Shown: positions 24-21,296 of the stretch, in pieces | Layout of the letters: the number at the start of each line of letters is the position of its first letter | How positions within the stretch are numbered: the stretch's first letter is position 1 | Virus record (IMG/VR): IMGVR_UViG_3300008267_001274 | Location: 1-22,240 of that record | Direction: 5' to 3' (one strand) | Source: a virus | Length of the DNA: 22,240 nucleotides | The notes under the pieces: model-generated | Databases searched by the model: none | What the model was told of the DNA's origin: nothing | Seen by the model: the letters and a program-made list of their open reading frames with translations, nothing else | Program-made: the position numbers and the translations under genes

Positions 24-332
24 ATGGAAGAAACGATATTCAGATATTATACACTTGATTCACACACTGAGGTTATTAGTGTGGACTTAACGCCAGAGGA
101 GAAACAAGAACTTGGGATAGATGAGAACAAGTTCGCCCACCTTAATGAGATAGGTTTTTCTACCCCAGTGGATTCCAACGAATGGGAAGAAGATTGTTTT
201 AATGTACTTATTGGAGAGACCCCAGATGACGAGGAGTTCGATGTTCTTTTGCTTCCTATATCTAGATTGCCCAAAAGATTTGAAGCGACCCACAGGTATT
301 TTCTGAAGGAAAGAGAAAAATATTATTCCTAG
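24..332 (+). CDS. hypothetical acidic protein, 102 aa
   Basis: A 102-residue acidic protein rich in Glu and Asp, with no signal peptide or membrane segment. I recognise no family. The ATG at 24 follows the leader AACCAATTAAAACAAATCAA, which is nearly identical to the leaders of the cassettes at 815 and 3048, so this start is well supported. Its promoter lies to the left of the window. The stop is immediately followed by the promoter of the next cassette, so this is a single-gene transcription unit. Probably an early accessory phage protein; function unknown. Confidence 0.75.
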   Translation: MEETIFRYYTLDSHTEVISVDLTPEEKQELGIDENKFAHLNEIGFSTPVDSNEWEEDCFNVLIGETPDDEEFDVLLLPISRLPKRFEATHRYFLKEREKYYS

Positions 333-333
333 G

Positions 334-365
334 TTTTTTTCCTACGCAGGGAATTAGTACTTTTA
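334..365 (+). promoter_or_regulatory. class A phage promoter (T7-CCTACG ... TACTTTTA)
   Basis: T7 at 334-340, CCTACG at 341-346, an 11-nt spacer, then TACTTTTA at 358-365, 22 nt before the ATG at 388. The T-run sits where the Bacteroidota -33 box would be and TACTTTTA where the TAnnTTTG -7 box would be. The upstream TAGG gives only a weak 4-bp stem with CCTA, so here the element reads mainly as a promoter. Confidence 0.75.
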
Positions 366-387
366 CTTCATAATCAAACACCACACC

Positions 388-738
388 ATGGACACAAAGG
401 TATCAATAGAAAATCTGGAATATGATCTCTCCCATAGGGAGAACATGACCTTCGAGCAAGCAAAATCCCTATGCGTTGACGGATGGAGAATACCAAAAAT
501 CGAGGAGTTAGCCGTGCTGGGGAAGGAGATGTATGTTAAAGGGAATAAAGTGTTCCTTGGAGGAAGACACTTATCCCCTAGACTTTACTGGACACCAGGG
601 ATGGTTAAATTTATGAGTGGAGGAGATATAGATGAATCCCAAGGAGCCTCCTCTCTATTCTATTTCGATCTTAATTGTGGATGGTTTATCTCCCTCCACG
701 AGAACAAACAATTTCTAATCCTAGTTAGGGACATCTGA
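388..738 (+). CDS. DUF1566-like (Lcl_C type) paralog, 116 aa
   Basis: Carries the signature of the DUF1566/Lcl_C domain, a compact C-type-lectin-like fold common in phage and Bacteroidota proteins: an N-terminal strand (NLEYDL), a Thr-Phe-Glu-Gln-Ala helix, DGWRIPKIEEL at about residues 31-41, YWTP at about 68, and the closing FLILVRDI at the C-terminus. Length is usual for a single domain. It is the only member in the cassette region; seven relatives lie at 12301-15773. It has its own class A promoter and is therefore probably expressed at a different time from the late-type cluster. Molecular role unknown; the fold often serves ligand binding. Confidence 0.75.
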   Translation: MDTKVSIENLEYDLSHRENMTFEQAKSLCVDGWRIPKIEELAVLGKEMYVKGNKVFLGGRHLSPRLYWTPGMVKFMSGGDIDESQGASSLFYFDLNCGWFISLHENKQFLILVRDI

Positions 739-748
739 AAATTTATTC

Positions 749-788
749 CCTGTAGGTTTTTTTCCTACGGGGGGAATTAGTACTTTTA
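749..788 (+). promoter_or_regulatory. class A promoter overlapping a terminator-like hairpin
   Basis: CCCTGTAGG pairs across a T7 loop with CCTACGGGGG (one G-T wobble), giving a terminator-like hairpin after the gene at 388. The same T7-CCTACG (757-769), an 11-nt spacer and TACTTTTA (781-788) form the promoter of the gene at 815. Confidence 0.75.
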
Positions 789-814
789 TATTATAACCAA
801 TTAAAACAAATCAA

Positions 815-1030
815 ATGAAAACAACAATTTTAGCCTTATCCTTTTTTGTAATCATGGTCTTTGGAACAGTGATGATGGTATTCGGAAACCACTTCGGTGA
901 TGTCATTGTAGTTATAGGCGCCATTGCAGGACTCTTTATCATGGAGGAAGATGAAAAGAAATTCTCCGATGAAGGGATGCACGAGAAGTACGAGCCTAGA
1001 AGACATGACGCCAACAGGGGATCTAATTGA
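815..1030 (+). CDS. small membrane protein, 71 aa
   Basis: Residues about 3-23 and 28-43 are two hydrophobic stretches separated by a short GNHFGD turn, followed by a charged C-terminal tail (MEEDEKKFSDEG...). This is a small two-segment inner-membrane protein with a hydrophilic tail. The start follows the leader TTATAACCAATTAAAACAAATCAA and a class A promoter. I recognise no family. Small early phage membrane proteins can act in superinfection exclusion or membrane remodelling, but nothing in the sequence tests that here. Confidence 0.75.
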   Translation: MKTTILALSFFVIMVFGTVMMVFGNHFGDVIVVIGAIAGLFIMEEDEKKFSDEGMHEKYEPRRHDANRGSN

Positions 1031-1082
1031 TCCCTAAAGATAGTATAGTAGTAAGATATTGCGCGTACGTGAGAGTATAAGG

Positions 1083-1114
1083 TTTTTTTCCTACGTTCTA
1101 AATTCGTATATTAG
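1083..1114 (+). promoter_or_regulatory. class A promoter (T7-CCTACG ... TATATTAG)
   Basis: T7 at 1083-1089, CCTACG at 1090-1095, 11-nt spacer, TATATTAG at 1107-1114, followed by the AATCAATTAAAA leader of the gene at 1147. No convincing hairpin pairs with this copy, which suggests that the T-run plus CCTACG is itself the conserved signal. The 1031-1082 stretch before it holds nothing I recognise. Confidence 0.7.
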
Positions 1115-1146
1115 CTTCATAATCAATTAAAAAGAAAATTAAGGGA

Positions 1147-1419
1147 ATGGTATCAGCATATGCAGGATGGAAATTAATAGCGACAAAAGATGTTTACTTC
1201 GATAGTGAAAGTAAAGAAAGAGTTTTTTCCCCTCCAAAAGATGGATGGAAAATCTTGGCTCTTGGAAAAGTCTACGAGATTGATTACGTAGTCCGATCCC
1301 ATAATGTATTTGCTATAAGGGGAGAAGATTCGGAGATGATAATAAGCTATGAATTTGCTGAAGAGATATTCGACCTCGAAAACATAGATTATACGGGAGA
1401 ATATTACGAAGAAGATTAA
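1147..1419 (+). CDS. hypothetical protein, 90 aa, SH3-like beta protein possible
   Basis: A short soluble protein rich in alternating hydrophobic/aromatic residues (WKLIATKDVYF, WKILALGKVYEI, VFAIRGED). It reads as a small beta-barrel and is followed by an acidic tail ending EYYEED. The pattern of a GKVYEI strand followed by a protective aspartate-rich end resembles small phage SH3-like proteins, but I cannot assign a family. The ATG at 1147 lies 32 nt after the class A -7 box. Expressed with the broken small ORF at 1438 that follows it. Confidence 0.65.
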   Translation: MVSAYAGWKLIATKDVYFDSESKERVFSPPKDGWKILALGKVYEIDYVVRSHNVFAIRGEDSEMIISYEFAEEIFDLENIDYTGEYYEED

Positions 1420-1437
1420 ATTAATAAATAAACGCAT

Positions 1438-1613
1438 ATGCCACCAGAAGGTTATTACAACAGAAGAAGAGAGGAACAGGATCGTTGATCATCAACGAGT
1501 ACCTCGAGTTCATGAGAAAGAAGGACGAAGAGGCCAAGCGAGAGAAATTATCCACTAAGTACTTCCGGGCTTATTCATCACTAGGAATAAAGATCTTTCT
1601 GAATTTAAACTAA
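1438..1613 (+). pseudogene. frameshifted small basic ORF (about 57 aa if restored)
   Basis: The ATG at 1438 opens only 16 codons (MPPEGYYNRRREEQDR) before TGA at 1486. A -1 shift there joins a frame that continues without interruption to TAA at 1611-1613 (INEYLEFMRKKDEEAKREK...). The two halves have the same highly charged, helical character and together look like one small protein lying 18 bp after the gene at 1147. CGTTGAT is not a classical slippery heptamer. A real frameshift mutation, a sequencing error, or a separate TTG-started ORF at 1485 are all possible. Confidence 0.5.
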
Positions 1614-1630
1614 AAAAAGTTCTTCCTAGG

Positions 1631-1662
1631 GTTTTTTCCTACGACGGAATGAAGTACTTTAG
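1631..1662 (+). promoter_or_regulatory. class A promoter (T6-CCTACG ... TACTTTAG)
   Basis: CCTAGGG, T6, CCTACG at 1638-1643, 11-nt spacer, TACTTTAG at 1655-1662, then an ATAACCAATCAATAAA leader to the ATG at 1689. Spacing matches the other cassette promoters exactly. Confidence 0.75.
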
Positions 1663-1688
1663 CTTCATAACCAATCAATAAAGACCCT

Positions 1689-2204
1689 ATGAAAACTATC
1701 ATCCGCTCAAACATCAACATCAGCAAGCTCGACCAATTCTTTTTCGCTGGTCGTTCTACCCTCACTTTCCGCAACAACGAGAAAGGAACCCACATCACAG
1801 TTCGAGTTAAGCAACTTAAGGATCGCAAAGATCGCAAGACCCCTCTACCTATCTTCTACGTGTTCGTTTCACTAGTGGGAGACAGCGATTACGGGTTCCG
1901 TTTCGGGGGAACAATCTTCAAAGACTCTATGCGTCTTAAGCTTGGAAGAGACGTGGAGTCAGGAGGACAACTCCACAAGGTAATGGAATTCCTTATGGGA
2001 GCTTTGGCTAGCCCAGAGTCTCTAAAGAAAAGAGTTTCTCTACTACACGAGGGCAAATGCTGCCGTTGCTCACGCCAACTCACTCACCCAGAATCAATCA
2101 ACACCGGATTCGGACCTGAGTGTCTAGACATAGTTCTTAGCCAAGCTAAGATCACACCTTCAGATCTATTCGAAAAACTAGGGGGAGAATCTTCTCCCCT
2201 TTAA
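1689..2204 (+). CDS. DUF6011-like zinc-ribbon protein, 171 aa
   Basis: The C-terminal part (about residues 121-150) carries GKCCRCSRQLTHPES followed by GFGPEC, the hallmark of DUF6011: a treble-clef-like zinc site with Cys124, Cys127 and Cys145 and probably a nearby fourth ligand. The N-terminal 110 residues form a basic beta-rich region (THITVRVKQL) of the kind found in phage and plasmid DUF6011 proteins, often suspected of nucleic-acid binding. Codon use differs clearly from its neighbours: many CGC/CGT arginine, ATC and CTC codons, whereas most of the window uses AGA, ATA and TTA. This suggests recent acquisition or high expression. Function unknown beyond the zinc domain. Confidence 0.8.
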   Translation: MKTIIRSNINISKLDQFFFAGRSTLTFRNNEKGTHITVRVKQLKDRKDRKTPLPIFYVFVSLVGDSDYGFRFGGTIFKDSMRLKLGRDVESGGQLHKVMEFLMGALASPESLKKRVSLLHEGKCCRCSRQLTHPESINTGFGPECLDIVLSQAKITPSDLFEKLGGESSPL

Positions 2205-2206
2205 GA

Positions 2207-2215
2207 GATATATAG
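2207..2215 (+). promoter_or_regulatory. class B box GATATATAG before gene at 2219
   Basis: GATATATAG ends 3 nt before the ATG at 2219 and lies between the two genes of this cassette. It matches the GATATATAAG box found before late-type genes. It could give the second gene its own late transcript or may be an A/T-rich translation signal. Confidence 0.45.
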
Positions 2216-2218
2216 ATC

Positions 2219-2707
2219 ATGGAAAAATCGATCGCAATGCCAATTTACCTCAAGTGTCTACTTGAAAGGGAATATCCGGGATATGAATTTTATATCAAGC
2301 CCTTTATAGTAGGGAGTGTTAACGACTATCTCCTTAATCGAGCCCCGTATTTTATCTGCTGGAGTAACCCAGAAAAAGACCCAAAGTGGAGATCCAGTGG
2401 ATACGGAGAAGATTACGAAGAAGGAGAAGACGCATCCTTTCCTGTCTTAGGGGTTATGGTGCCATCAGGGGAGATCTACACTCTTTCCTATGAAGACAAA
2501 TATTACCTCAACTGCGATCCGGAAAATGAGGTCCCAAATAAAGACAAATCCACTCTTAGCGGGATTTCTCAGTTTCTATCAATACCCGGAATCTCCGAAG
2601 AAAGGTTAGCAAACACCCTTATAGACAGGAAAATCCTCGACCCCAAAGGTCACCTCAGAAAGCTTCTAAAAGATGCATTCTATAAGAGTCTTTGGGAAAT
2701 GGAATAA
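2219..2707 (+). CDS. hypothetical protein, 162 aa
   Basis: Soluble acidic protein with an aromatic-rich N-terminal half (YPGYEFYIKPFIVG, APYFICWSNP), a GYGEDYEEGED acidic loop and a helical C-terminal third with two short helices (ERLANTLIDRK, LRKLLKDAFYKSLWEME). I recognise no family. It lies 14 bp after the DUF6011 gene in the same cassette and is followed by a strong hairpin terminator. Codon use is intermediate between the DUF6011 gene and the AT-rich genes downstream. Confidence 0.7.
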   Translation: MEKSIAMPIYLKCLLEREYPGYEFYIKPFIVGSVNDYLLNRAPYFICWSNPEKDPKWRSSGYGEDYEEGEDASFPVLGVMVPSGEIYTLSYEDKYYLNCDPENEVPNKDKSTLSGISQFLSIPGISEERLANTLIDRKILDPKGHLRKLLKDAFYKSLWEME

Positions 2708-2724
2708 TTTCGATAAAAAGTTTT

Positions 2725-2753
2725 CCCGTAGGTTTTTTTCCTACGGGTTTTTT
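2725..2753 (+). terminator. intrinsic terminator CCCGTAGG-T7-CCTACGGG-T6
   Basis: Perfect 8-bp stem 2725-2732/2740-2747 with a T7 loop and T6 tail at 2748-2753. It ends the transcript of the gene at 2219 and shares its T7-CCTACG with the next promoter. Confidence 0.75.
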
Positions 2754-2764
2754 GTGTACTTTTA
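2733..2764 (+). promoter_or_regulatory. class A promoter, embedded in terminator
   Basis: T7 2733-2739, CCTACG 2740-2745, 11-nt spacer, TACTTTTA 2757-2764. Drives the small ORF at 2792. Confidence 0.75.
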
Positions 2765-2791
2765 TATTATAACCAATTAAACAAAAGACCA

Positions 2792-2972
2792 ATGAGAGAA
2801 ATTAATGAAGTTATTGAAACATTAGAAAACGAATTTGGTGCAGAAATTACCAAAAATGAAGATTATTATTATTATGAAGTAAATATCTATGATCCATTTG
2901 AAGGGCATTTATCAGGATTTAGAATTAACCGATGGTGAATTAGTTGATTTATTAGAAATGCTTGAGGGCTAA
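2792..2972 (+). pseudogene. frameshifted small acidic ORF (about 59 aa if restored)
   Basis: The ATG at 2792 gives 48 codons (MREINEVIETLENEFGAEI... ending GFRINRW, TGA at 2936-2938). A one-base shift near 2925 continues as LTDGELVDLLEMLEG to TAA at 2970-2972, immediately before the next hairpin. The restored tail fits both in character and in position at the cassette end, so the 48-aa form is probably truncated by a single extra base in ATTAACC. The gene is more AT-rich than its neighbours and is bracketed by the 67-bp repeats. An intact 48-aa gene is the alternative reading. Confidence 0.55.
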
Positions 2973-2981
2973 AAAAGTTTT

Positions 2982-3010
2982 CCCGTAGGTTTTTTTCCTA
3001 CGGGTTTTTT
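2982..3010 (+). terminator. intrinsic terminator, second copy
   Basis: Stem 2982-2989/2997-3004, T7 loop, T6 tail at 3005-3010; identical to the hairpin at 2725. Confidence 0.75.
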
Positions 3011-3021
3011 GTGTACTTTTA
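2990..3021 (+). promoter_or_regulatory. class A promoter, embedded in terminator
   Basis: T7 2990-2996, CCTACG 2997-3002, 11-nt spacer, TACTTTTA 3014-3021; drives the gene at 3048. Confidence 0.75.
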
Positions 3022-3047
3022 TATTATAACCAATTAAAACATATCAC

Positions 3048-3191
3048 ATGAAAACAATCGAATTTTTAGCTTTCAGATCTCTACAAGCGATAGCGATCGT
3101 ATTAGGTTCAATGGTTTTTGCATCTATCGTTTTCGCGATAGTTCAAATCTTCCTAGGAAACACACTAGCAGGAGCTTCCCGGGAATTCTAA
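3048..3191 (+). CDS. single-span small membrane protein, 47 aa
   Basis: MKTIEFLAFRSLQ is followed by a hydrophobic run of about 28 residues (AIAIVLGSMVFASIVFAIVQIFL) and a short polar tail (GNTLAGASREF). This is a one-pass membrane peptide, or possibly a tight hairpin. The ATG at 3048 follows the standard AACCAATTAAAACATATCAC leader, the ORF fills the cassette, and the stop at 3189-3191 lies 17 bp before the next hairpin, which together support it as a real gene despite its size. Function unknown. Confidence 0.65.
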   Translation: MKTIEFLAFRSLQAIAIVLGSMVFASIVFAIVQIFLGNTLAGASREF

Positions 3192-3208
3192 ATTTCCCGA
3201 AACTTTAT

Positions 3209-3250
3209 CCCCCGTAGGGTTTTTTTCTACGGGGGTTTACCGTACATTTG
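3209..3250 (+). promoter_or_regulatory. class A promoter overlapping a 9-bp hairpin
   Basis: CCCCCGTAG (3209-3217) pairs with CTACGGGGG (3227-3235) around a GG-T7 loop. The promoter reads T7-CTACG, 11-nt spacer, TACATTTG at 3243-3250, the closest cassette -7 box to the host TAnnTTTG. The stem is longer and differs in sequence from the 2725 hairpin while still pairing. Confidence 0.75.
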
Positions 3251-3272
3251 TCCTAATCAAAAACCAAACATC

Positions 3273-3593
3273 ATGAAAATAGAAAGAGAAGATTTAATCG
3301 GAAAGGAATTCCAAGGGAGAAAGGCCTCTCGCGTTATCGAAATTCCAGCAGCGGGAACATTCAGAGCCTTCTACGAGGCGGAGTCCCTAGTAAAAGAACT
3401 GGGTTACCAAGTAGGGTCTATGTGCGGATCAGAACCAATAGGGTTTGCTCTAGGCTACGATTATGTTGCAAAGTGGTATAACATCGACCACGGAGACAGA
3501 AGTCGCTTAGACGGACTCCTATTGCACGACGGAGGGTTTAGAGAAGGAGGAGTAAAGGTCATATTCTTTAACCAACCACACCTGGGCGAATAG
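3273..3593 (+). CDS. hypothetical protein, 106 aa
   Basis: Soluble protein with a MKIEREDLIGKEFQGRKA start, a helix (FRAFYEAESLVKELGY), then GSMCGSEPIGFAL and a VAKWYNIDHGDR segment. I recognise no family with confidence; small phage proteins with a similar GSM-x-x-x-EPIG-x motif occur, and here it resembles an alpha/beta domain. It is a single-gene cassette with its own class A promoter, and the next promoter begins 7 bp after its stop. Base composition is richer in GC than in the genes after 5100. Confidence 0.7.
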   Translation: MKIEREDLIGKEFQGRKASRVIEIPAAGTFRAFYEAESLVKELGYQVGSMCGSEPIGFALGYDYVAKWYNIDHGDRSRLDGLLLHDGGFREGGVKVIFFNQPHLGE

Positions 3594-3599
3594 CCTAGG

Positions 3600-3631
3600 T
3601 TTTTTTCCTACGAGGGGAATTAGTACTTTTA
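3600..3631 (+). promoter_or_regulatory. class A promoter (T7-CCTACG ... TACTTTTA)
   Basis: T7 3600-3606, CCTACG 3607-3612, 11-nt spacer, TACTTTTA 3624-3631, then a TTATAACCAATTAATAAA leader to the ATG at 3658. Confidence 0.75.
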
Positions 3632-3657
3632 CCTTATAACCAATTAATAAAAGCCCA

Positions 3658-3909
3658 ATGAACAAGTACGACGAATTTATTGCCAGCATCGCGAAGCTCC
3701 CAGATGCGAAAAAACAAAGCCTATCGGATACCTGGTGTCCGGACGAGGGTGGGGACGAAGCCACTGCGACCTTAGGTTCTGCTGTATGGACCACTATTAG
3801 AATATCGGATGGCAAGGGATTTCAAGAAAGGGCCATCCGATTCCTGACCTCAGCTGGGGTGGAGGATCCACAGGGGGAATTGGACGAGTTTATTAGGGTC
3901 TTTAGATAG
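3658..3909 (+). CDS. hypothetical protein, 83 aa
   Basis: Small soluble acidic protein: an N-terminal helix (KYDEFIASIAKLPDAKKQSL), a WCPDEGGDEATATL loop, and a C-terminal helical end (GELDEFIRVFR). No recognised domain. It has its own class A promoter and a conserved leader, which support the start. The last cassette before the long non-coding stretch. Confidence 0.7.
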   Translation: MNKYDEFIASIAKLPDAKKQSLSDTWCPDEGGDEATATLGSAVWTTIRISDGKGFQERAIRFLTSAGVEDPQGELDEFIRVFR

Positions 3910-4160: not shown

Positions 4161-4240
4161 GCTTTAATAATAAACTTTAATAACCTTTAATAACCTTTAA
4201 TAACCTTTAATAACCTTTAATAACCTTTAATAGATTAAAG
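4161..4240 (+). repeat. tandem 10-bp repeats (TAACCTTTAA)
   Basis: Five perfect copies of TAACCTTTAA at 4181-4230, preceded by two degenerate units at 4161-4180 and followed by a diverged unit. The 10-bp period places every unit on the same face of the helix, as in iterons or protein-binding arrays. Lies 70 bp upstream of the gene at 4299. Confidence 0.85.
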
Positions 4241-4266
4241 AATAACCAGGAAAATCATTTCTCTTT

Positions 4267-4276: not shown

Positions 4277-4298
4277 AGGATTGACACAAAAAGAAAAA

Positions 4299-9016: not shown

Positions 9017-9619
9017 ATGAAAACAGTAAAAGAAAAAAAGTTACTAGATCCGGGATTGGTAAATCTTATAGAGGGATGCGTAAGGGGAGAAAGAAGGTCC
9101 CAGGAAAAACTATATTCTATGTTTAAGGAGAAGATGAGAATAGTTTGTAAGAGGTATTTTAAGGATCAGGACTCTATAGAAGAGGTGCTTCAAGACAGTT
9201 TCATAAAGGTGTTCAAAAAAATAGGGGATTATAGACTAGATGGCTCTTTCGAGGGGTGGGTTCAAAGAATAGTAAGAAACACGGCGATAGATCTTATAAG
9301 AAGACATAAAAATAAATTTGTTTTACCCAGTGATGATATTCTTTTCGATCTGGATAGACCGGACGATTCTTTAGGATCTGAGGAATGGGACGACATCGTG
9401 GAAAAGTCCGATATAGTAAAAAGGGAAATGGGAAAAATGACAGACAAGTACAGGGAAGCTATAAATCTGTTTGTTATCGAGGATAAGAGTCACAGAGAGA
9501 TTGCGGTATCCCTGGGAATCCAGGAGGGCACATCCAAATCCAATTTCTTTAGGGCCAAAGCTAAAATAAATAAAACACTCATAGAAAAATATCCAGATAA
9601 ATTCTGGGTTAAAAATTGA
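9017..9619 (+). CDS. ECF-type RNA polymerase sigma factor, 200 aa
   Basis: Region sigma-2 spans about residues 28-98 (KLYSMFKEKMRIVCKRYFKD, EEVLQDSFIKVFKKIGDYRL, FEGWVQRIVRNTAIDLIRRHK), including the -7/-10 recognition helix. Sigma-4 spans about 138-190 (MTDKYREAINLFVIEDKSHREIA ... EGTSKSNFFRAKAKI) with the helix-turn-helix that reads the upstream element. There are no sigma-1 or sigma-3 regions, as in extracytoplasmic-function sigmas, and the sequence type is that of Bacteroidota ECFs. It has its own promoter and is flanked by two terminators, so it is expressed alone. It probably directs a class of phage or host promoters; no anti-sigma gene is adjacent. Confidence 0.92.
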   Translation: MKTVKEKKLLDPGLVNLIEGCVRGERRSQEKLYSMFKEKMRIVCKRYFKDQDSIEEVLQDSFIKVFKKIGDYRLDGSFEGWVQRIVRNTAIDLIRRHKNKFVLPSDDILFDLDRPDDSLGSEEWDDIVEKSDIVKREMGKMTDKYREAINLFVIEDKSHREIAVSLGIQEGTSKSNFFRAKAKINKTLIEKYPDKFWVKN

Positions 9620-11637: not shown

Positions 11638-11647
11638 GATATATAAG
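11638..11647 (+). promoter_or_regulatory. class B box GATATATAAG, 2 nt before ATG
   Basis: TTTGATATATAAG followed by GT and the ATG at 11650. If it works as a T4-late-type box, the mRNA would be leaderless or start inside the gene. Confidence 0.55.
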
Positions 11648-12300: not shown

Positions 12301-12648
12301 ATGGAAAAATTCATAAGATTCGGTAATGTAGAAGTCGAGATTAAATCTGAATTCAACTCAAGTTATGAGAATAAAAAATCTTGGAAAGATTCAAAAGACG
12401 ATCTTATGGATAGAGAACTTAGGTTACCCACGCTAAAAGAATTAAAGTATATTCACAATCTTTTATATTTAAACTACGGCGGATATTTCGAGGAAGGGTC
12501 GGAATATTGGACTTCAGATATTGGCGATGAATGGGCAGAAGGGAGCGAACTGGAATCTCGAAAAACTTTAAGAATGAACTATCAGGGAACACCTAGTCAA
12601 AAATATATTTATTCTCGAATGAGATATAGAGGAGTAAGAAATATATGA
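12301..12648 (+). CDS. DUF1566-like paralog 2, 115 aa
   Basis: Starts MEKFIRFGNVEVEI (the GN/GK-x-E-V strand common to the cluster), then LRLPTLKELKYIHNL at about residues 40-54, YWTSDIGDEW at about 69-78, and the closing MRYRGVRNI. All core DUF1566 landmarks are present in a single-domain length. The stop overlaps the next start as ATGA, so it is translationally coupled to paralog 3. Function unknown; the family usually serves ligand or surface binding. Confidence 0.78.
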   Translation: MEKFIRFGNVEVEIKSEFNSSYENKKSWKDSKDDLMDRELRLPTLKELKYIHNLLYLNYGGYFEEGSEYWTSDIGDEWAEGSELESRKTLRMNYQGTPSQKYIYSRMRYRGVRNI

Positions 12649-13139
12649 AAAGAGAAACTTTAGAAATAGGAAAAATTGAGATCTGTCTAATTGATTTAGG
12701 AGGAGGTACATATCCCGGAGGAAATGAGGATCTGGATGAAATGGTGTCTAGAAAATTAGGATGGATGGGAGAAAATGGATGGAGGTTTCCTACTAAAGAA
12801 GAATTTTTCTATATAGGAAATCTAGTATATGATCTGGGATTAATAAATTATAAGGTATTAGAATCTTTTGAAAAATATTGGTCTGGTACCTCTTTTACTC
12901 TTAATGATCCTCCAAGAAGCGGGGTTCCCGGAGGAGTTCCCGATTATATAGAAGATCTTTTGGCAGCAGGAATAGAAATAGATAAATCGGATCCAATAGT
13001 CTTATTATATAAGCTTTCTACTAAAGCAGGAAAAACTTATAAAGTAGAAGATTGGGAATGGTATCCTTCTGCTTATAGAGAAGGACCCTCAATGGGTAAA
13101 AGACCGGAAGCAAGGTATATAGCGGTAAGAGATCTATGA
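12645..13139 (+). CDS. DUF1566-like paralog 3, 164 aa
   Basis: N-terminal LEIGKIEICLIDL, then NGWRFPTKEEFFYIGNLVYDLGL at about residues 44-66, YWSGTSF at about 81-87 and the end ARYIAVRDL. Longer than the usual single domain because of an insertion between the YW motif and the C-terminal strand (PPRSGVPGGVPDYIEDLLAAG...). Overlaps both neighbours by ATGA. Such a loop insertion in a lectin-like fold is where binding diversity would be expected. Confidence 0.8.
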   Translation: MKRETLEIGKIEICLIDLGGGTYPGGNEDLDEMVSRKLGWMGENGWRFPTKEEFFYIGNLVYDLGLINYKVLESFEKYWSGTSFTLNDPPRSGVPGGVPDYIEDLLAAGIEIDKSDPIVLLYKLSTKAGKTYKVEDWEWYPSAYREGPSMGKRPEARYIAVRDL

Positions 13140-13612
13140 AAAAGAAAATTCTCAAATTAGGAAATTTTGAATTACTTCTAGAAAAATTAGATCCTACTAA
13201 TTATTCAGATCCAGAGAATTACGCAAAAAAGAGAGGTTTAGGTAAAGGATGGAGATTTCCTTCTCCCGAAGAATTCGAATACATATCGGATCTAAAAAAA
13301 TTAAAAATTTTACCAGAGGAATTCCTAAAAATGGGCAGTTATTGGACTAATTTTTATGTGTACTTTGACGAGTTGGATCATATAAAATACAGTAAAGTAA
13401 AGAAAGAAATAGAGGAATTTGTAGAAGAAGAACTTCAAAATAATGAAAATATGAAAATCCACGATTGGACTATTATAGTTAAAACATTTTCCGTGGGATC
13501 AAATTACCATTATCATTCGTATGAATTTTCTGAATATGACGAACGGGAAGAAAAAAGAGATGCAACAATATACCCTACTGGTGGATATATTTTAGTTAGA
13601 GATTTAAAATAA
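13136..13612 (+). CDS. DUF1566-like paralog 4, 158 aa
   Basis: N-terminal LKLGNFELLLEKL, then GKGWRFPSPEEFEYISDLKK at about residues 36-55, YWTNFYVYF, an acidic Lys/Glu-rich insertion (KVKKEIEEFVEEELQNNE) and the end GGYILVRDLK. Contains an unusual His/Tyr-rich stretch near residue 130 (NYHYHSYEFSEYDE) that could bind metal. Ends this co-transcribed set before the terminator at 13635. Confidence 0.8.
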   Translation: MKKKILKLGNFELLLEKLDPTNYSDPENYAKKRGLGKGWRFPSPEEFEYISDLKKLKILPEEFLKMGSYWTNFYVYFDELDHIKYSKVKKEIEEFVEEELQNNENMKIHDWTIIVKTFSVGSNYHYHSYEFSEYDEREEKRDATIYPTGGYILVRDLK

Positions 13613-13634
13613 TGCCTGCTACCTTAGGCAAATT

Positions 13635-13668
13635 AAAAGGATCTAGATCTTAGGGTCTAGATCTTTTT
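13635..13668 (+). terminator. intrinsic terminator, GATCTAGA stem
   Basis: AAAAG-GATCTAGA (13635-13647) pairs with TCTAGATC-TTTTT (13656-13668) around TCTTAGGG, giving 12-13 bp with one G-T wobble and a T-run. A class B box follows immediately. Confidence 0.8.
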
Positions 13669-13672
13669 TAAT

Positions 13673-13682
13673 GATATATAAG
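13673..13682 (+). promoter_or_regulatory. class B box GATATATAAG
   Basis: Directly after the terminator and 4 nt before the ATG at 13687; the genes from 13687 need a promoter here. Confidence 0.6.
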
Positions 13683-13686
13683 AAGA

Positions 13687-14061
13687 ATGGTAAATGAATA
13701 TAAAGATAGTATTAATCTAGGAAAAATCGAAGTATCCCGTAATGATATTAAACTAACAGACGGTACTTATAAATTTTCAATCAACGATTTTAAAGAAATT
13801 AATAATCACATTGAAGAAGGATGGAGATTTCCAACGGAAGAAGAATTTAGATATATTCATTCGATTTGGAAAGATCTGGACGGTTTAGGTCTAGCAAGGA
13901 ATTCCGACTACTGGATATACGGCGAAGCCATTCCCCATCCTATACATAGTGATCCGATATGGAAATTATACCCATGCGCTATTATGAATAGAGATTCTTT
14001 AGAATTTCGGGAATCCCCATTTATGTTAGGTCTTAGAATTAGATTAGTTAGGGATTTATGA
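13687..14061 (+). CDS. DUF1566-like paralog 5, 124 aa
   Basis: INLGKIEVSRNDI, EEGWRFPTEEEFRYIHSIWKDL at about residues 43-64, SDYWIYGEA at about 77-85 and the end LRIRLVRDL. Close to the domain's standard length. First gene after the terminator and class B box; its stop overlaps the next start as ATGA. Confidence 0.8.
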   Translation: MVNEYKDSINLGKIEVSRNDIKLTDGTYKFSINDFKEINNHIEEGWRFPTEEEFRYIHSIWKDLDGLGLARNSDYWIYGEAIPHPIHSDPIWKLYPCAIMNRDSLEFRESPFMLGLRIRLVRDL

Positions 14062-14498
14062 AAGAACTTTTAAATATAAAGGATTATGACTCTTTCTCTC
14101 CGTTGAATGAGATGATGGATGGGTATAAACAAGGGGGAATGGTCTTGATTCTAGGTAAAAAACTAGAGAATGGGGAAAAAAGAATTTTTGCTTGTCCTAT
14201 AAAAACTGTAATACATTCACCAAGAACCAAAATTAACGGGAAGGAAGGGAGTCCTGCTAAAATGGTTATTCTTCATGACGATACCTATAGAATAGAAATG
14301 GATTCTTCTGGTAAATTTACATCACATAAAATATCAGGAAGAGATAAAGCTTTAGGAATTCTCGGAAACAAGATAGCCTTAAATAAAAATAAAACTCCCT
14401 ATCATTGGATATCTACTAATTATCAATCCGTCGGATCCCTAATTTCCGGAATGGATAATATTCTTAAATCAATTCCGGACATAAGATGGAAAAATTAA
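14058..14498 (+). CDS. capsid-targeting-like N-terminus protein, 146 aa
   Basis: MKELLNIKDYDSFSPLNE matches the capsid-targeting pattern, with L-x-E cleavage predicted after residue 18. The mature part is beta-rich (GMVLILGKKLENGEKRIFACP, SPAKMVILHDDTYRIEMDS) and then helical. No enzymatic motif recognised. It sits between DUF1566-like paralogs 5 and 6, overlapping both, so the lectin-like proteins and this possibly packaged protein are made together. Confidence 0.7.
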   Translation: MKELLNIKDYDSFSPLNEMMDGYKQGGMVLILGKKLENGEKRIFACPIKTVIHSPRTKINGKEGSPAKMVILHDDTYRIEMDSSGKFTSHKISGRDKALGILGNKIALNKNKTPYHWISTNYQSVGSLISGMDNILKSIPDIRWKN

Positions 14499-14833
14499 TA
14501 AGATTTGGAAATTTTTTAATATCCCCGGATTCCCAGAAAGAATTAATGAATTTTGAGGTAGAGGAAGAAATTAAAAAATTGGGTCCTGGATGGAGAATAT
14601 GCAAGAAAGAAGAATTTAAATATATCTTAAAATTTTTATTTAAATATAAAACAGGAAAAAAATTCGGATTCAAAGATGGAGATCGGATTAAAGACGGAAA
14701 AATATATCACCCTTTATATTCTTTTGAAGAAGGTGGAATTTTCTACGTGGACAATAAAGATATATTCGAGATATTTCCTTCGGAGGATATGGAAGATTTT
14801 ACATTAAATTATATTTTTGTAAAGGATATATAA
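14486..14833 (+). CDS. DUF1566-like paralog 6, 115 aa, diverged
   Basis: MEKLIRFGNFLIS and PGWRICKKEEFKYILKFLFKY (about residues 33-53) and the end NYIFVKDI mark the family, but the proline-threonine after WR is replaced by ICK and the YW motif is missing. It overlaps the preceding gene by 13 bp. Probably a degenerating or functionally changed member. Confidence 0.72.
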   Translation: MEKLIRFGNFLISPDSQKELMNFEVEEEIKKLGPGWRICKKEEFKYILKFLFKYKTGKKFGFKDGDRIKDGKIYHPLYSFEEGGIFYVDNKDIFEIFPSEDMEDFTLNYIFVKDI

Positions 14834-14834
14834 T
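14825..14834 (+). promoter_or_regulatory. class B-like GATATATAAT overlapping a stop codon
   Basis: GATATATAA encodes Asp-Ile-stop of the previous gene and lies 3 nt before the ATG at 14838. May be chance because the C-terminal motif constrains it. Confidence 0.35.
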
Positions 14835-14837
14835 TAA

Positions 14838-15155
14838 ATGAAGAATCTAGAGATTTACGAAAACTACTCAGGGGAAAAAATTATTAAAATGGATTCTACC
14901 AGGGGAGCTGGGAGCATTACAATTAAAATCCAGGGGTCTAAAATCTTAGATATTATAAATCAGTCGAGAGTAAATTTCCCATTTAGGGAAGGACAAACAT
15001 ACACAAGATCGATAGAGACTTGGGCTTGTAACAATAATTTTAATATAGATGGAAAATCTCCTTGTTCTCCTAAAAAAGTTTTCGGGATAGATCCTAAACA
15101 TATACCTTATAGAGAACACAAGAATATTTCTTACCCCTTTCTCCGTCTCCTTTAA
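14838..15155 (+). CDS. capsid-targeting-like N-terminus protein, 105 aa, altered C-terminus
   Basis: MKNLEIYENYSGE is a shortened form of the MK-x-L-x-x-Y-E-x-x-x-x-E pattern shared with MENIQTYENFLNE at 19833. The middle is beta-rich (GAGSITIKIQGSKILDIINQS). The last 20 residues (HIPYREHKNISYPFLRLL) run antisense through the end of the leftward gene at 15094, which suggests that the ORF was fused to foreign DNA at its 3' end. No known domain. Confidence 0.6.
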   Translation: MKNLEIYENYSGEKIIKMDSTRGAGSITIKIQGSKILDIINQSRVNFPFREGQTYTRSIETWACNNNFNIDGKSPCSPKKVFGIDPKHIPYREHKNISYPFLRLL

Positions 15156-15444
15156 ATCCTGTTCCTACGTGCATGATCTCGTCCGTTTCTACCGAATCGT
15201 ATATAGTAAAAGTCGAGAAATAGAAATTAACTCCTGTGTCATCGGAAGAGAAATAGACCCATTCAGGAAAATCCCCTACTTCTAATTCTTTAAGATTTTG
15301 AATATAATAGAATATTCTTTTATTAGGAACTTTCCATCCTTCCCCTTTATATTTAGGTAAAACCTCTTCCACTAATTGTCTATAGGTAAATCTTTCTCCT
15401 ATCTTCTTAATCGTGATTCTCCCTAAATTTATATCTTTTTCCAC
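15094..15444 (-). CDS. DUF1566-like paralog 7, 116 aa, altered C-terminus
   Basis: MEKDINLGRITIKKIG, EGWKVPNKRIFYYIQNLKEL at about residues 35-54 and VYFSSDD where others have YWTS. The expected final R-x-V-R-D-L is replaced by KKYSCVLYKVYV, and the last 62 bp overlap the convergent gene ending at 15155. Start overlaps the stop of paralog 8 by one base. Reads leftward, opposite to paralogs 2-6. Confidence 0.75.
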   Translation of the reverse strand: MEKDINLGRITIKKIGERFTYRQLVEEVLPKYKGEGWKVPNKRIFYYIQNLKELEVGDFPEWVYFSSDDTGVNFYFSTFTIYDSVETDEIMHVGTGFKGDGERGKKYSCVLYKVYV

Positions 15445-15773
15445 TATAAATCTTTTACAAGTCTTATCCTAAACCTATTAGTACTACTTAAATATTTGGT
15501 TTTTATATTATATGAATTAATCCAATTACCATCTCCGGTTTCGGTTTTTTTCATTAAATAATGAAAAGGAGGGTAAAAATTTTCAAAATTTCCTATTCCT
15601 AAATCATGAATACTTCTTATATACCGGGATTCATCTATTGTTGGTAATCTCCAGCCTTCTTTTGATCTTTCTTCTAGAGCCGATCCTACTTCCATCCAGC
15701 TGCTGTAAAAGACTCCTCCAAAATCATTATCCTCTATTGCTATTTTCCCTATGATTATTTCCCTACTTTTCAT
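15444..15773 (-). CDS. DUF1566-like paralog 8, 109 aa
   Basis: EIIIGKIAIEDNDFGGVFYSSW, then EGWRLPTIDESRYIRSIHDLGIG at about residues 39-61, a FHYLMKKT segment in place of the YW motif, and the closing FRIRLVKDL. Of the set, its WRLPT core is closest to typical DUF1566 proteins. First gene of a two-gene leftward unit diverging from the histidine kinase operon. Confidence 0.8.
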   Translation of the reverse strand: MKSREIIIGKIAIEDNDFGGVFYSSWMEVGSALEERSKEGWRLPTIDESRYIRSIHDLGIGNFENFYPPFHYLMKKTETGDGNWINSYNIKTKYLSSTNRFRIRLVKDL

Positions 15774-15781
15774 CTTTATTT

Positions 15782-15791
15782 TTTATATATC
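15782..15791 (-). promoter_or_regulatory. class B box GATATATAAA, leftward
   Basis: Lies 8 nt upstream of the leftward ATG at 15773; gives the two leftward DUF1566-like genes a late-type promoter. Confidence 0.6.
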
Positions 15792-15834: not shown

Positions 15835-17973
15835 ATGTCTTGGAAATATAAAATATCCCTAGTAGTATCTATAGCAATAATGGCTATCTTCTTTGCTACC
15901 CAATCTTTATTGGTTTTTAAATTCATGAAGTATGCCGATACGATAGGATACTTTGGATATTCTTGTTTTTTAGCTTTCATACCTTTCTTTTTGGTTGTAA
16001 TTTCGGAATACATTAAAAAGAATAATAAAGGGAAAGAACAGAATTCCTATGTGAAAAAATTAAACAGGGTACTTATAAATCAAACAAGCAATAAATTATT
16101 CTATGACGGGAACACTAAAGAAGGAGCTAAAGTTCTAACTAAAGAAGTTACGAAATCGATAGGAGCTGATCGATGTTCAATATGGCTATATAGCGAAGAT
16201 AAAACATCAATAACTTGTGAGCAATTGTATATCGAATCCGAAGATAAATGGTACCAAGGATTAGAATTGAAGAAAGATGACTTTGAACCATATTTCGTAG
16301 CCCTTTCGGTAGATCCAATTATAATTGCAAATGACGCGGAAACACATTCAGCTACATCTTGTTTTACTGAAGGATATCTAAAACCTCTAGGGGTTAAATC
16401 GATGCTCGATGTTCCTATTATCTACAGAGGAGATATCATAGGGGTTGTGTGTATAGAAACTTTAACTAATAAAAATTGGAGGGATTGCGAAGTTGATTTT
16501 GCCCAGCTATTATCTTCTATTTATAGTTTCTCCTATTCCGTTAAAGAAGGAAATGATCTACTGAGAAGAAACAAAGAAACTGAAAATTTCTTAAATGCAT
16601 CATCGATTATTTCGACTACAGATAAATACGGAAAAATTACATACGTTAATAAAAAATTCGAGGAGGTTTCCGGATGGTCTTTAGAAGAGGTATCAGGTAA
16701 GGATCACAACATTGTTAATTCCGGATTACAGCCAGATGGATATTGGGGTAAAATGTACGAAACTGTAATGAAAGGGGAGATATGGAATGATGTTGTTACT
16801 AATACATCTAAGACCGGAGAACTTTACTATGTCGACACATACATTAGAGCAAGATTTGATAAAGATAACAAATTAGAAGGTTTTTCTTCTATTAGACAAG
16901 ATGTTACGGACCTTAAGAAAAAAGAGGTAGAAATCCGAAATAGGATGAATGCGATAAATAAATCCAATGCAGTTATCGAGTTTGATCTAAACGGGAATAT
17001 TATTTTTGCTAATGGTATGTTTATAGAAACTATGGGATATACCTCTCACGAAGAAATAGAAGGAAAACATCATAGAATTTTTATAGACGACGAGTATTCA
17101 AAAAGTGAAGAATATTCTATTTTTTGGAAAAAATTAAGAGAAGGAGTATTATTTTCTGGGGAAATTGTTAGGGTTAAAAAAGATGGATCCCTTATACATC
17201 TCCAAGCCACATATAATCCAATTGTTGGTCTAGACGGTAAAATTTATCGTATCATGAAAATTGCTACTGATATTACTAATTCTTACGAACAAAGGAAAGA
17301 GATCGAAAAGAAAAATACTTATCTAGAGCATGCAGCTAAGATATTAAGACATGATATGCACTCGGGAATTAATACTTATATGCCAAGAGGGCTAAGCTCT
17401 CTAGAAAGAAGACTAACCTCCGAAGATATTTCATCTCTAAAAATAGAAGCACCTATCAGAATGATCAAAGAAGGTCTGAAACATTCGCAAAAGGTATATA
17501 AAGGGGTTTACGAGTTTACCAATTTGGTTAAAAAGGACGTTGTTCTCAATAAAGCAGAATGTAACCTAAAAACTATTTTAGAAGATTATTTATCTTCCAC
17601 CGCATATAGTAGCCAAGTTATTATTGAAGAATTACCGACGATTCAAGTAAATGAAGCTTTATTCTGTACAGCGGTTGATAATTTAATTAGAAATGGTCTA
17701 AAGTATAACGATTCCGATACTAAATACGTAAAAATATATTTAGAAAAAGATTACATCTGCATACAAGACAACGGAAGGGGAATCTCACAAGAAGATTTCG
17801 ATCATTTAGCCAAGCCATACACGAGAAAGGAAGGCCAAAAAGAATCTGGTACCGGACTAGGACTAAACATCTGCGTTGCGATTTTAGAAGAACATGGATT
17901 TATCATCACGTGCGAGAAAAACGAGATAGGAACAAAAATGAAAATAAAAATAAAAAAAGAGAAAAATGATTGA
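15835..17973 (+). CDS. membrane hybrid-sensor histidine kinase (2 TM-GAF-PAS-PAS-HisKA-like-HATPase), 712 aa
   Basis: Two membrane spans at about residues 8-30 and 39-59 have almost no periplasmic loop. A GAF domain follows at about 78-235 (DRCSIWLYSED, SMLDVPIIYRGDIIGVVCIET). PAS1 is at about 247-360 (GKITYVNKKFEEVSGWSLEE, ending IRQDVTDL) and PAS2 at about 370-482 (NGNIIFANGMFIETMGYTSHE, ending KIATDIT). The dimerisation helix carries His506 in LRHDMHSGIN, with Gly where HisKA usually has Pro. The ATPase domain has the N-box DNLIRNGLKYN (615-625), G1 DNGRGI (645-650) and G2 GTGLGLNIC (672-680), so it looks active. There is no receiver domain. It overlaps the regulator gene by 8 bp. The sensor appears aimed at cytoplasmic or membrane signals. 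Confidence 0.95.
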   Translation: MSWKYKISLVVSIAIMAIFFATQSLLVFKFMKYADTIGYFGYSCFLAFIPFFLVVISEYIKKNNKGKEQNSYVKKLNRVLINQTSNKLFYDGNTKEGAKVLTKEVTKSIGADRCSIWLYSEDKTSITCEQLYIESEDKWYQGLELKKDDFEPYFVALSVDPIIIANDAETHSATSCFTEGYLKPLGVKSMLDVPIIYRGDIIGVVCIETLTNKNWRDCEVDFAQLLSSIYSFSYSVKEGNDLLRRNKETENFLNASSIISTTDKYGKITYVNKKFEEVSGWSLEEVSGKDHNIVNSGLQPDGYWGKMYETVMKGEIWNDVVTNTSKTGELYYVDTYIRARFDKDNKLEGFSSIRQDVTDLKKKEVEIRNRMNAINKSNAVIEFDLNGNIIFANGMFIETMGYTSHEEIEGKHHRIFIDDEYSKSEEYSIFWKKLREGVLFSGEIVRVKKDGSLIHLQATYNPIVGLDGKIYRIMKIATDITNSYEQRKEIEKKNTYLEHAAKILRHDMHSGINTYMPRGLSSLERRLTSEDISSLKIEAPIRMIKEGLKHSQKVYKGVYEFTNLVKKDVVLNKAECNLKTILEDYLSSTAYSSQVIIEELPTIQVNEALFCTAVDNLIRNGLKYNDSDTKYVKIYLEKDYICIQDNGRGISQEDFDHLAKPYTRKEGQKESGTGLGLNICVAILEEHGFIITCEKNEIGTKMKIKIKKEKND

Positions 17974-18403
17974 TTCAATTTTATTAGTGGATGACGAGGA
18001 TTTATTCCATTTAGTATTCGAAGATGCTTGTTCATTACTTGACATAAGTTTATCTTTAAACTCCTTAAATAGCTCCGACGAAGCAGCAAAGCTATTCCAA
18101 AAGTGGTTCCAGAGTGGGGACGATAACGATAAGCCTGAATGTGTTTTCGTAGATCTTAATATAATAGGAAGTTCTTTCGATGGAATAGAACTTATTAGAA
18201 AAATTAATTTTGAGTATGGGAATCACGTAGTAATAGGTATAATATCTTCTTCGAACGAGGCAGAAGAGCAATCTAAAGCTATTCAAGCAGGAGCCCAATT
18301 CTGGATAATTAAATCCGATGATATCGAACCTAGATTAGAAGAATTCAGAAAAGACTATGAAGGGTATAAGAATAGAACTAATCCGTTCAAGATCTATAAA
18401 TAA
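17966..18403 (+). CDS. single-domain CheY-like response regulator, 145 aa
   Basis: ILLVDDED provides the acidic pair Asp9/Asp10. VFVDLN carries the phosphoacceptor Asp63, IISSSNE the switch Ser94/95, and FWIIKSDD the conserved Lys116, so a complete receiver domain fills residues 1-128. Only a short basic tail follows, with no DNA-binding or enzymatic output domain, so signalling must be by protein-protein contact. Overlap with the kinase gene supports cognate pairing. The closest functional analogues are stand-alone receivers such as CheY, Spo0F or DivK, but the partner here is unknown. Confidence 0.93.
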   Translation: MIDSILLVDDEDLFHLVFEDACSLLDISLSLNSLNSSDEAAKLFQKWFQSGDDNDKPECVFVDLNIIGSSFDGIELIRKINFEYGNHVVIGIISSSNEAEEQSKAIQAGAQFWIIKSDDIEPRLEEFRKDYEGYKNRTNPFKIYK

Positions 18404-20421: not shown

Positions 20422-20706
20422 AATTTGTCCTTCTTTTATCTTGGTAACTTTAACTATAAGATCTTTTTCTCCCATTATTACCCTATGGTATTTCCCTTTC
20501 GGTATTAATATAGGGGTTTTGCTTATGGTAAAAGGAAGATCGTCGTCAAATTGAAACATCCAATCGGTTTCTTCTACCAGTTCTACTATTCTATCCTCTT
20601 CGTCAAAATGCCATTTTAATTCTTCAGGGTCTATTCTTTTCGTAAATCCCCTTATGGAAGAATTTTCAGATATAACAATTTCGTTATATGGAAAATTTTC
20701 TACCAA
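20413..20706 (-). CDS. cupin-like small phage protein, 97 aa (TTG start preferred)
   Basis: The motifs LKWHFDEEDRIVELVEETDWMF, then QFDDDLP, ILIPKGKYHRVIMGEKDLIVKV, match a cupin-like beta-barrel found in T4-like and pelagic phages (WH-x-D-x-x-DR ... IPKG-x-x-HR-x-I-x-G-x-x-DL). The first His and the IPKG-H pair would be the metal ligands. The longest frame opens at an ATG at 20766, 67 bp inside the upstream gene, and its extra N-terminus (residues 1-20) is not convincing. I prefer the TTG at 20706, which overlaps the upstream stop TAG by 7 bp. Enzymatic role unknown. Confidence 0.7.
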   Translation of the reverse strand: MVENFPYNEIVISENSSIRGFTKRIDPEELKWHFDEEDRIVELVEETDWMFQFDDDLPFTISKTPILIPKGKYHRVIMGEKDLIVKVTKIKEGQIDI

Positions 20707-21296
20707 GGTTTGTTTGACTTTAGGCCTAAAAGTTTTGCATATCTTCCGACATTGCAAGCCCACCATCTAGCTTTCCATCTAGGTCCGGGGGTTTTACATT
20801 TATGCCTAGCTCTAAAAGATCTTGAAGCTTCCGGATTGTCGTTTTTAACTGTAGCTCCCGGTTGTCCCCATTCAACTTTAACTACCCTTCCTTTGTCATT
20901 TTTAGTAAAAACCCTAAATTTATGTTTACCCGACATTCTTCTAGGTTTATTAAGATCTACTTTTTTACCCTGATATTCCGCTTCATATAGATCTTCTTCG
21001 TCTTCTTCTGAATCCCCTTTTTCAAAAGGAACGTCTAGAAGAACTTGTTCGCCTTCAAAAATTCCTATTTTTCCAGCATCCGTACTTATTAAAAATAAAT
21101 CATCTTCTTCTAGCTCTATCGATCCTTCTTCCCATAGGGTTCTTGCTTCATTCACACAATTTATCCAAGAATCTGACCCTATTCTTAGGACGCTATCCAA
21201 TAGACCTATTTCGTGTTTTAAATGGTAATTTAGAAATTCGCTTATTTGATATTCCCCTTCTTTTATAGGGGAGTTTAGAGGTTTTAGGTTTTTCAC
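20700..21296 (-). CDS. phage RARH/PGP-motif C-terminal domain protein, 198 aa
   Basis: N-terminus MKNLKPLNSPIKEGEYQISE has a possible targeting peptide with I-K-E cleavage before Gly14. The C-terminal domain (about residues 104-188) reads LYEAEYQGKKVDLNKPRR, then KHKFRVFTKNDKGRVVKVEWG and SFRARHKCKTPGPRWKARWW, a signature I know from T4-like cyanophages, pelagiphages and jumbo phages as an uncharacterised domain near head genes. Cys residues in RARHKC and WWAC could bind a metal. No function is established to my knowledge. Confidence 0.8.
   Translation of the reverse strand: MKNLKPLNSPIKEGEYQISEFLNYHLKHEIGLLDSVLRIGSDSWINCVNEARTLWEEGSIELEEDDLFLISTDAGKIGIFEGEQVLLDVPFEKGDSEEDEEDLYEAEYQGKKVDLNKPRRMSGKHKFRVFTKNDKGRVVKVEWGQPGATVKNDNPEASRSFRARHKCKTPGPRWKARWWACNVGRYAKLLGLKSNKPW

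What the first reader, a model, noticed from the sequence alone, without database searches (positions are those of the whole stretch)
12301..15773. Seven-member array of DUF1566-like (lectin-fold-like) paralogs, with an eighth at 388
Seen: eight proteins share GK-x-E near the start, GWR-x-PT-x-EEF-x-YI in the middle, a YW site and a terminal R-x-V-R-D-L, while loops differ strongly in length and sequence. Some have lost motifs (14486, 15094). Known: DUF1566/Lcl_C belongs to compact lectin-like folds used for binding. Inference: duplicated, diversified binding proteins, perhaps for host-range or surface adhesion, or head decoration, expressed late from class B boxes beside capsid-targeting genes.
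Basis: partly seen in the sequence, partly recalled or inferred. Interest (0 to 1): 0.72.

Follow-up and report, generated by a model that had tools for sequence, protein, structure and literature searches.

The report
Phage array of lectin-fold binding proteins
A giant virus of bacteria carries eight very different copies of one small "grabbing" protein shape, and its relatives carry none to four at the places I could read, so this looks like a changing toolkit of binders, but what they bind is unknown.

Summary
The array is real. Eight window proteins form one family: a profile built from them and their relatives scores all eight at 51-76 bits and every other window gene below 7. The predicted fold is a C-type lectin fold. 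The best solved match is the Legionella Lcl C-terminal (DUF1566) domain at Z 9.0, ahead of snake-venom lectins at 7.0.

The proteins are divergent relatives of Pfam Lcl_C, all below its curated cut-off. Relatives exist in about twenty uncultured phage contigs, often as tandem arrays. Copy number differs between relatives: none in a 348-kb relative, 2, 3 and 4 at one syntenic site in a second lineage, eight here. No reverse transcriptase was found in 12 related records, so this is not an evident diversity-generating retroelement.

The adhesin or head-decoration reading is possible but not shown. The member at 388 sits in a separate, probably early promoter block, is 81% identical to an ortholog, and is under purifying selection. 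The others sit in late-type operons among genes with capsid-targeting-like N-termini. In one other phage the domain is fused behind such an N-terminus. I favour diversified cytoplasmic or virion-carried binders over surface adhesins. Ligands are unknown.

The parts
388..738 (+). family member 1 (116 aa); probably early class; ortholog in phage record G014
357..377 (+). class A promoter-like box (GTACTTT...ATAATCAA) before 388
   Evidence: sequence
11638..11645 (+). late-type box GATATATA, 4 nt before the ATG of 11650; 11650 heads the transcription unit inferred for 12301-13612
12301..12648 (+). family member 2 (115 aa)
12645..13139 (+). family member 3 (164 aa); modelled, best structural match Lcl C-terminal domain Z 9.0
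13136..13612 (+). family member 4 (158 aa)
13640..13663 (.). palindromic stem-loop between members 4 and 5; terminator-like, reported by the scan on the minus strand
13673..13680 (+). late-type box GATATATA, 6 nt before the ATG of 13687
13687..14061 (+). family member 5 (124 aa); first structure model
14058..14498 (+). interleaved gene, not a family member; homolog in G001 (32%)
14486..14833 (+). family member 6 (115 aa), degenerate motifs
14825..14832 (+). late-type box GATATATA, 5 nt before the ATG of 14838
14838..15155 (+). interleaved gene with capsid-targeting-like N-terminus (MKNLEIYENYSGE); homologs in G001 (45%) and G014 (40%)
15094..15444 (-). family member 7 (116 aa), C-terminus antisense to the 3' end of 14838, no terminal VRDL
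15444..15773 (-). family member 8 (109 aa)
15784..15791 (-). late-type box GATATATA, 10 nt before the start of the minus-strand pair

Best explanation
These are stand-alone, single-domain C-type-lectin-fold (Lcl_C/DUF1566-like) binding proteins that belong to an old, repeatedly duplicated and lost family in T4-like large phages, probably of Bacteroidota. A fixed core (first hairpin, GWRxPT turn, helix 2, last strand) holds long loops that differ between copies, so each copy should present its own binding surface. Shown: homology, fold prediction, copy-number change, absence of a reverse transcriptase in the related records, two promoter-like sequence classes. Inferred: that they bind ligands through the loops, and that they work inside the infected cell or travel in the virion with internal head proteins, rather than as surface adhesins. 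On this reading 388 acts early in the cell, and the seven array copies are made late, for packaging or for late-phase targets.
For: Fold: the model of 12645 (pLDDT 74.5, pTM 0.67) matches Legionella Lcl-CTD at Z 9.0, rmsd 2.9 over 107 residues, next best 7.0, and all 50 listed rows appear to be C-type-lectin-fold chains; the model of 13687 has the same top hit (Z 5.9). Family: 19 of 31 members hit Lcl_C at E<=0.01, and relatives in L077 and L068 exceed the Pfam cut-off. Dynamics: 0 copies in G001 and 4 in G010, 3 and 4 in the partial records G011 and G012, and 2, 3 or 4 copies at the same place in L067, L061/L115 and L116/L117, with a supported fourth-copy duplication. No array lies beside the chitinase and histidine-kinase genes in G014. 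No reverse transcriptase in 12 related records. Regulation: 52 of 77 GATATATA sites in G001 lie within 45 nt upstream of a gene, and genes with capsid-targeting-like N-termini are enriched for the box (odds ratio 12, p 2e-12). Class A sites cluster in one block in G001 and G014 and share no gene with GATATATA there; the 388 ortholog lies in that block. Packaging link: in L077 two such domains follow a capsid-targeting-like N-terminus (MRLLEILPLLEA), beside an ART-PolyVal-like gene and near a gp21-like prohead protease. Conservation of 388: 81% identity, pN 0.12 against pS 0.76.
Against: No ligand, expression or virion data. The window proteins themselves have no capsid-targeting-like N-terminus. 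The fusion is one architecture in two near-identical contigs. In G010 the enrichment of the box at capsid-targeting-like genes is not significant (p 0.30). Early and late are inferred from sequence motifs only. Lcl_C domains elsewhere are mostly known as extracellular adhesins or tail-borne retroelement targets.
Confidence: 0.5

Rival explanations
1. Virion surface proteins: head-decoration or tail-associated adhesins whose different loops bind different host or environmental glycans and adjust attachment or host range.
For: Lcl binds sulphated glycosaminoglycans through this domain (PMC11162425). C-type lectin domains are known phage receptor-binding parts and retroelement targets (PMC10743442, PMC8143477). 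Array units have late-type boxes. A stand-alone fold can decorate a capsid, as T4 Hoc does.
Against: 388 has the other promoter class, its ortholog lies in a probably early gene block, and it is conserved. No stalk, trimerisation or fibre-binding extension, and no calcium-site motif (EPN, QPD, WND) in the window proteins. Array neighbours are not recognisable tail or decoration genes.
Confidence: 0.28
2. Packaged and injected accessory proteins only (a narrower form of the best explanation): all array copies ride inside the head and act in the newly infected cell, like T4 IPI to IPIII or Alt.
For: Interleaving with genes whose products begin with capsid-targeting-like sequences, here and in G010, L057, L058 and L066. 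Fusion behind such an N-terminus in L077.
Against: The window copies have no capsid-targeting-like N-terminus; they start with a beta strand. Adjacency may only reflect a shared late accessory region.
Confidence: 0.2
3. Selfish or near-neutral duplication in a permissive accessory region, with decay of copies and little function.
For: Rapid copy-number change. Degenerate copies 14486 and 15094. A shortened copy in G010 relative to its L057 and L058 orthologs.
Against: Orthologs are under purifying selection: pN well below pS for every ortholog pair compared, and pN 0.12 against pS 0.76 for 388. Core fold residues are kept in copies with about 20-35% identity.
Confidence: 0.12
4. Variable proteins of a diversity-generating retroelement.
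For: C-type lectin-fold DUF1566 proteins are common retroelement targets (PMC4159848).
Against: No reverse transcriptase in 12 related records up to 372 kb and no reverse-transcriptase-like motif in a gene of the window; the exact 20-base repeats listed fall at class A promoter elements. Copies differ throughout, with insertions and deletions, and not only at template adenines.
Confidence: 0.02

Closest known systems
Legionella pneumophila Lcl C-terminal domain (PDB 8q4e; Pfam PF07603 Lcl_C, formerly DUF1566)
   Same: Predicted fold (Z 9.0 over 107 residues), GWRxPT core motif, final VRD strand, and no calcium-site motif, as in Lcl
   Different: No collagen stalk or surface anchor; stand-alone phage proteins; below the Pfam cut-off; trimer not tested
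Phage C-type-lectin retroelement targets (Mtd, Bacuni phage DUF1566 proteins, tentaclins)
   Same: Same fold class; variation concentrated in surface loops
   Different: No reverse transcriptase or template repeat found; variation by old duplication and divergence; no tail or immunoglobulin domains
T4 internal head proteins (IPI-IPIII, Alt) with capsid targeting sequences
   Same: Late-type promoter boxes and genomic neighbourhood; one fusion behind a capsid-targeting-like N-terminus in L077
   Different: Window members have no such N-terminus; sequence unrelated
T4 Hoc head decoration protein
   Same: Small accessory binding-fold phage protein, as a hypothesis only
   Different: Different fold; no virion evidence; several paralogs

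Membership tests
Pfam PF07603 Lcl_C (DUF1566) | Score above the curated cut-off (34.9 bits) | tested here: not met
   Best window protein 17.2 bits. Not filed as a Pfam member; relatives in L077 and L068 do pass.
Pfam PF07603 Lcl_C (DUF1566) | Core GWRxPT turn plus terminal VR(D) strand | tested here: met
   Consensus GWRxPTxEEFxYI ... VRDL; 14486, 15094 and 12301 deviate.
Pfam PF07603 Lcl_C (DUF1566) | Same fold as the solved Lcl-CTD | tested here: met
   Predicted model: top structural match Z 9.0, 2.9 A, 107 residues; same top hit with a second model, Z 5.9.
Pfam PF07603 Lcl_C (DUF1566) | Trimer formation and glycan binding as in Lcl | not testable with these tools
   Needs protein.
Calcium-dependent C-type lectins | EPN/QPD/WND calcium and sugar motifs | tested here: not met
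   None in the eight window proteins.
Calcium-dependent C-type lectins | Conserved disulfide bonds | tested here: not met
   0-2 cysteines per window protein, not shared between copies.
Diversity-generating retroelement target | Reverse transcriptase nearby | tested here: not met
   None in 12 related records, and no RT-like motif in a window gene; the window is a fragment.
Diversity-generating retroelement target | Template and variable repeats | tested here: not met
   The exact 20-base repeats listed fall at class A promoter elements.
T4-type internal head protein | N-terminal capsid targeting sequence | tested here: not met
   All eight start with a strand-forming 'IxxGxIE'-type sequence.
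Head decoration protein (Hoc/Soc-like) | Present on the virion surface | not testable with these tools
   No proteomics.

The most novel reading that the evidence does not exclude
Large phages keep a germline repertoire of lectin-fold binders, diversified by duplication and not by a retroelement. One is expressed early and others late, and they act inside the host cell (some perhaps injected with the DNA) against host factors such as defence proteins or signalling molecules.
Probability: 0.25. Interest if true: 0.78.

Novelty: new variant of a known kind. Interest (0 to 1): 0.52.

Why it matters
C-type lectin domains are the best-known fold in phages for tolerating extreme variation, but are mainly described as retroelement-targeted tail proteins. 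A 2021 survey of 224 jumbo phages reported no FGS domains of this fold (PMC7824862). A retroelement-free, tandemly expanded family in large T4-like phages would be a second route to diverse binders. Pfam, PHROGs and NCBIfam do not identify the window members above cut-off, so it goes unannotated. The orthologous arrays with 2, 3 and 4 copies make the function testable by comparison.

Tried and rejected
PHROGs and NCBIfam gave no credible match for any member. Sequence search of solved structures found nothing useful. tblastn of window members against 50,697 phage genomes gave no match for 12645 and 13687, and only weak hits (E 0.3 and above) in E. coli phage tail fibre and J proteins for 15444. 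Three relatives also gave no match. Strict DNA patterns for GWRxPxxEEFxY found nothing else in viral contigs. In bacterial genomes they found only a Prevotella lipoprotein-like surface protein, set aside as a separate protein. Foldseek alone gave no E below 0.001, and BFVD gave nothing. Diversity-generating retroelement rejected. A recent local burst rejected: window copies need 7 label changes on the tree, as shuffled labels do (mean 7.4), though many branches are long and weakly supported. Positive selection over whole genes not seen; synonymous change is large, so ratios are rough. Structural genes of G010 are too divergent for PHROGs to name, so 'late' for the GATATATA box rests on its T4-like form, on capsid-targeting-like genes and on one helicase-type gene carrying it.

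Full report
What was checked. The window is a 22,240-base virus record, probably a fragment. All eight open reading frames exist as stated. They are homologous: phmmer within the window groups them, and a profile of 31 sequences, the eight included, scores them 51-76 bits while the next window gene scores 6.9. The seven-copy stretch is interrupted by two unrelated genes (14058, 14838) and turns to the minus strand for the last two copies.

Fold. Two AlphaFold2 models were made, 13687 with 8 sequences (pLDDT 64, pTM 0.60) and 12645 with 31 sequences (pLDDT 74.5, pTM 0.67). For both, the best structural alignment among solved chains is the Legionella Lcl C-terminal domain, 8q4e: Z 5.9 and Z 9.0 with 2.9 A over 107 residues. 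The remaining listed rows appear to be C-type lectin-fold chains throughout, the best at Z 7.0. Foldseek alone is weak. Pfam Lcl_C is found below its cut-off for three window members and for 19 of 31 relatives at E<=0.01. In Lcl the conserved DUF1566 residues are mostly core residues (PMC11162425), so the shared motif here is best read as fold core and not as an active site. Length differences are largest between the YW strand and the last strand.

Relatives. A 348-kb record, G001, shares some genes at 60-73% identity with the window but has no copy. A 206-kb record, G014, shares the response regulator (86%), histidine kinase (53-58%), chitinase-like lysin (69%) and an 81% ortholog of 388. It has three further members elsewhere (one weak) and none around the lysin and kinase genes, where the window has the array. 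G010, collinear with G001 in its structural module, has four members. G011 and G012 carry three and four. Another lineage has 2, 3 or 4 tandem copies at one place (L067, L061, L115, L116, L117), with the same downstream gene in the loci displayed. The fourth copy of L116 groups with its third-copy type with full support. More distant Lcl_C-like arrays and multi-domain versions occur in 306- and 372-kb records (L068, L074).

Evolution. Window copies do not form one clade, so they look like old paralogs. Ortholog pairs of members in G010, L057 and L058 evolve faster than the most conserved neighbours but with pN well below pS. 388 against its G014 ortholog gives pN 0.12 and pS 0.76.

Regulation and place. 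GATATATA, resembling the T4 late promoter, lies 4-10 nt before the starts of 11650, 13687, 14838 and the minus-strand pair. In G001, 52 of its 77 occurrences lie in the 45 nt upstream of genes, and genes with capsid-targeting-like starts are strongly enriched for it; in the shorter G010 record the same test is not significant. 388 has a different promoter-like box; such boxes cluster in a block of about 20 kb in G001 and about 30 kb in G014, with no gene there carrying both, and the 388 ortholog lies inside that block. That the block is early is inference. Members in G010, L057, L058, L060 and L066 lie next to genes with capsid-targeting-like starts, including a CHAP/NlpC-type and an SLT-type gene. 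In L077 two domains follow a capsid-targeting-like start in one 497-residue protein, next to an ART-PolyVal-like gene and near a gp21-like prohead protease. No reverse transcriptase occurs in 12 related records.

Interpretation. The safe statement is an expanded, retroelement-free family of Lcl_C-like C-type-lectin-fold proteins in T4-like large phages. Host Bacteroidota is inferred from Flavobacterium phages as the nearest named relatives of one gene and from promoter form. That the loops bind different ligands is inference from the fold and from known relatives. Inside the cell or inside the head is preferred over surface adhesion because of 388's class and conservation, the lack of anchors and stalks, and the L077 fusion, but this is not decided. 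A surface role for the late copies remains open at about 0.28.

Novelty. The fold and domain are known. [quoted passage not shown] It is called a new variant of a known kind.

Noticed in passing
window 15835-18403: Phage-encoded two-component pair: GAF/PAS histidine kinase and response regulator. The response regulator is 86% identical in G014, the most conserved shared window gene there, and G014 has a second kinase piece.
   Followed up: partly
window about 320-3660: Repeated element before class A genes: a short inverted repeat with a T-rich loop (for example CCGTAGG-T7-CCTACGG) followed by GTACTTTTA...TATAACCAATTAA. Class A genes cluster in one block in G001 and G014.
   Followed up: partly
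window, G001, G010: GATATATA late-type box sits 4-6 nt before many start codons, which would give leaderless or near-leaderless late transcripts.
   Followed up: partly
L077 4278-7571: Tandem proteins with capsid-targeting-like start MxLLExLPLLEA, one with two Lcl_C domains, beside an ART-PolyVal-like gene; the N-terminal domain also occurs in a 735-kb phage record (LR756501).
   Followed up: partly
L060 1-2458 and L061 380-952: Tandem paralogs of another repeat protein (MTREEFIxxLxxxGYxYxIxGDKI...LPPGVxFxNxGxVxLxSL); in L061 it directly precedes the lectin-fold array.
   Followed up: no
window 9017-9619: ECF-type sigma factor gene in the phage, outside the class A block.
   Followed up: no
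window 20700-21296: HVA1-like C-terminal domain shared with phages of Flavobacterium, Methylophilales, Tenacibaculum, Pelagibacter and Roseobacter; start resembles capsid-targeting sequences.
   Followed up: no
window about 4190-4260: Tandem AACCTTTAAT repeats just before the gene at 4281.
   Followed up: no
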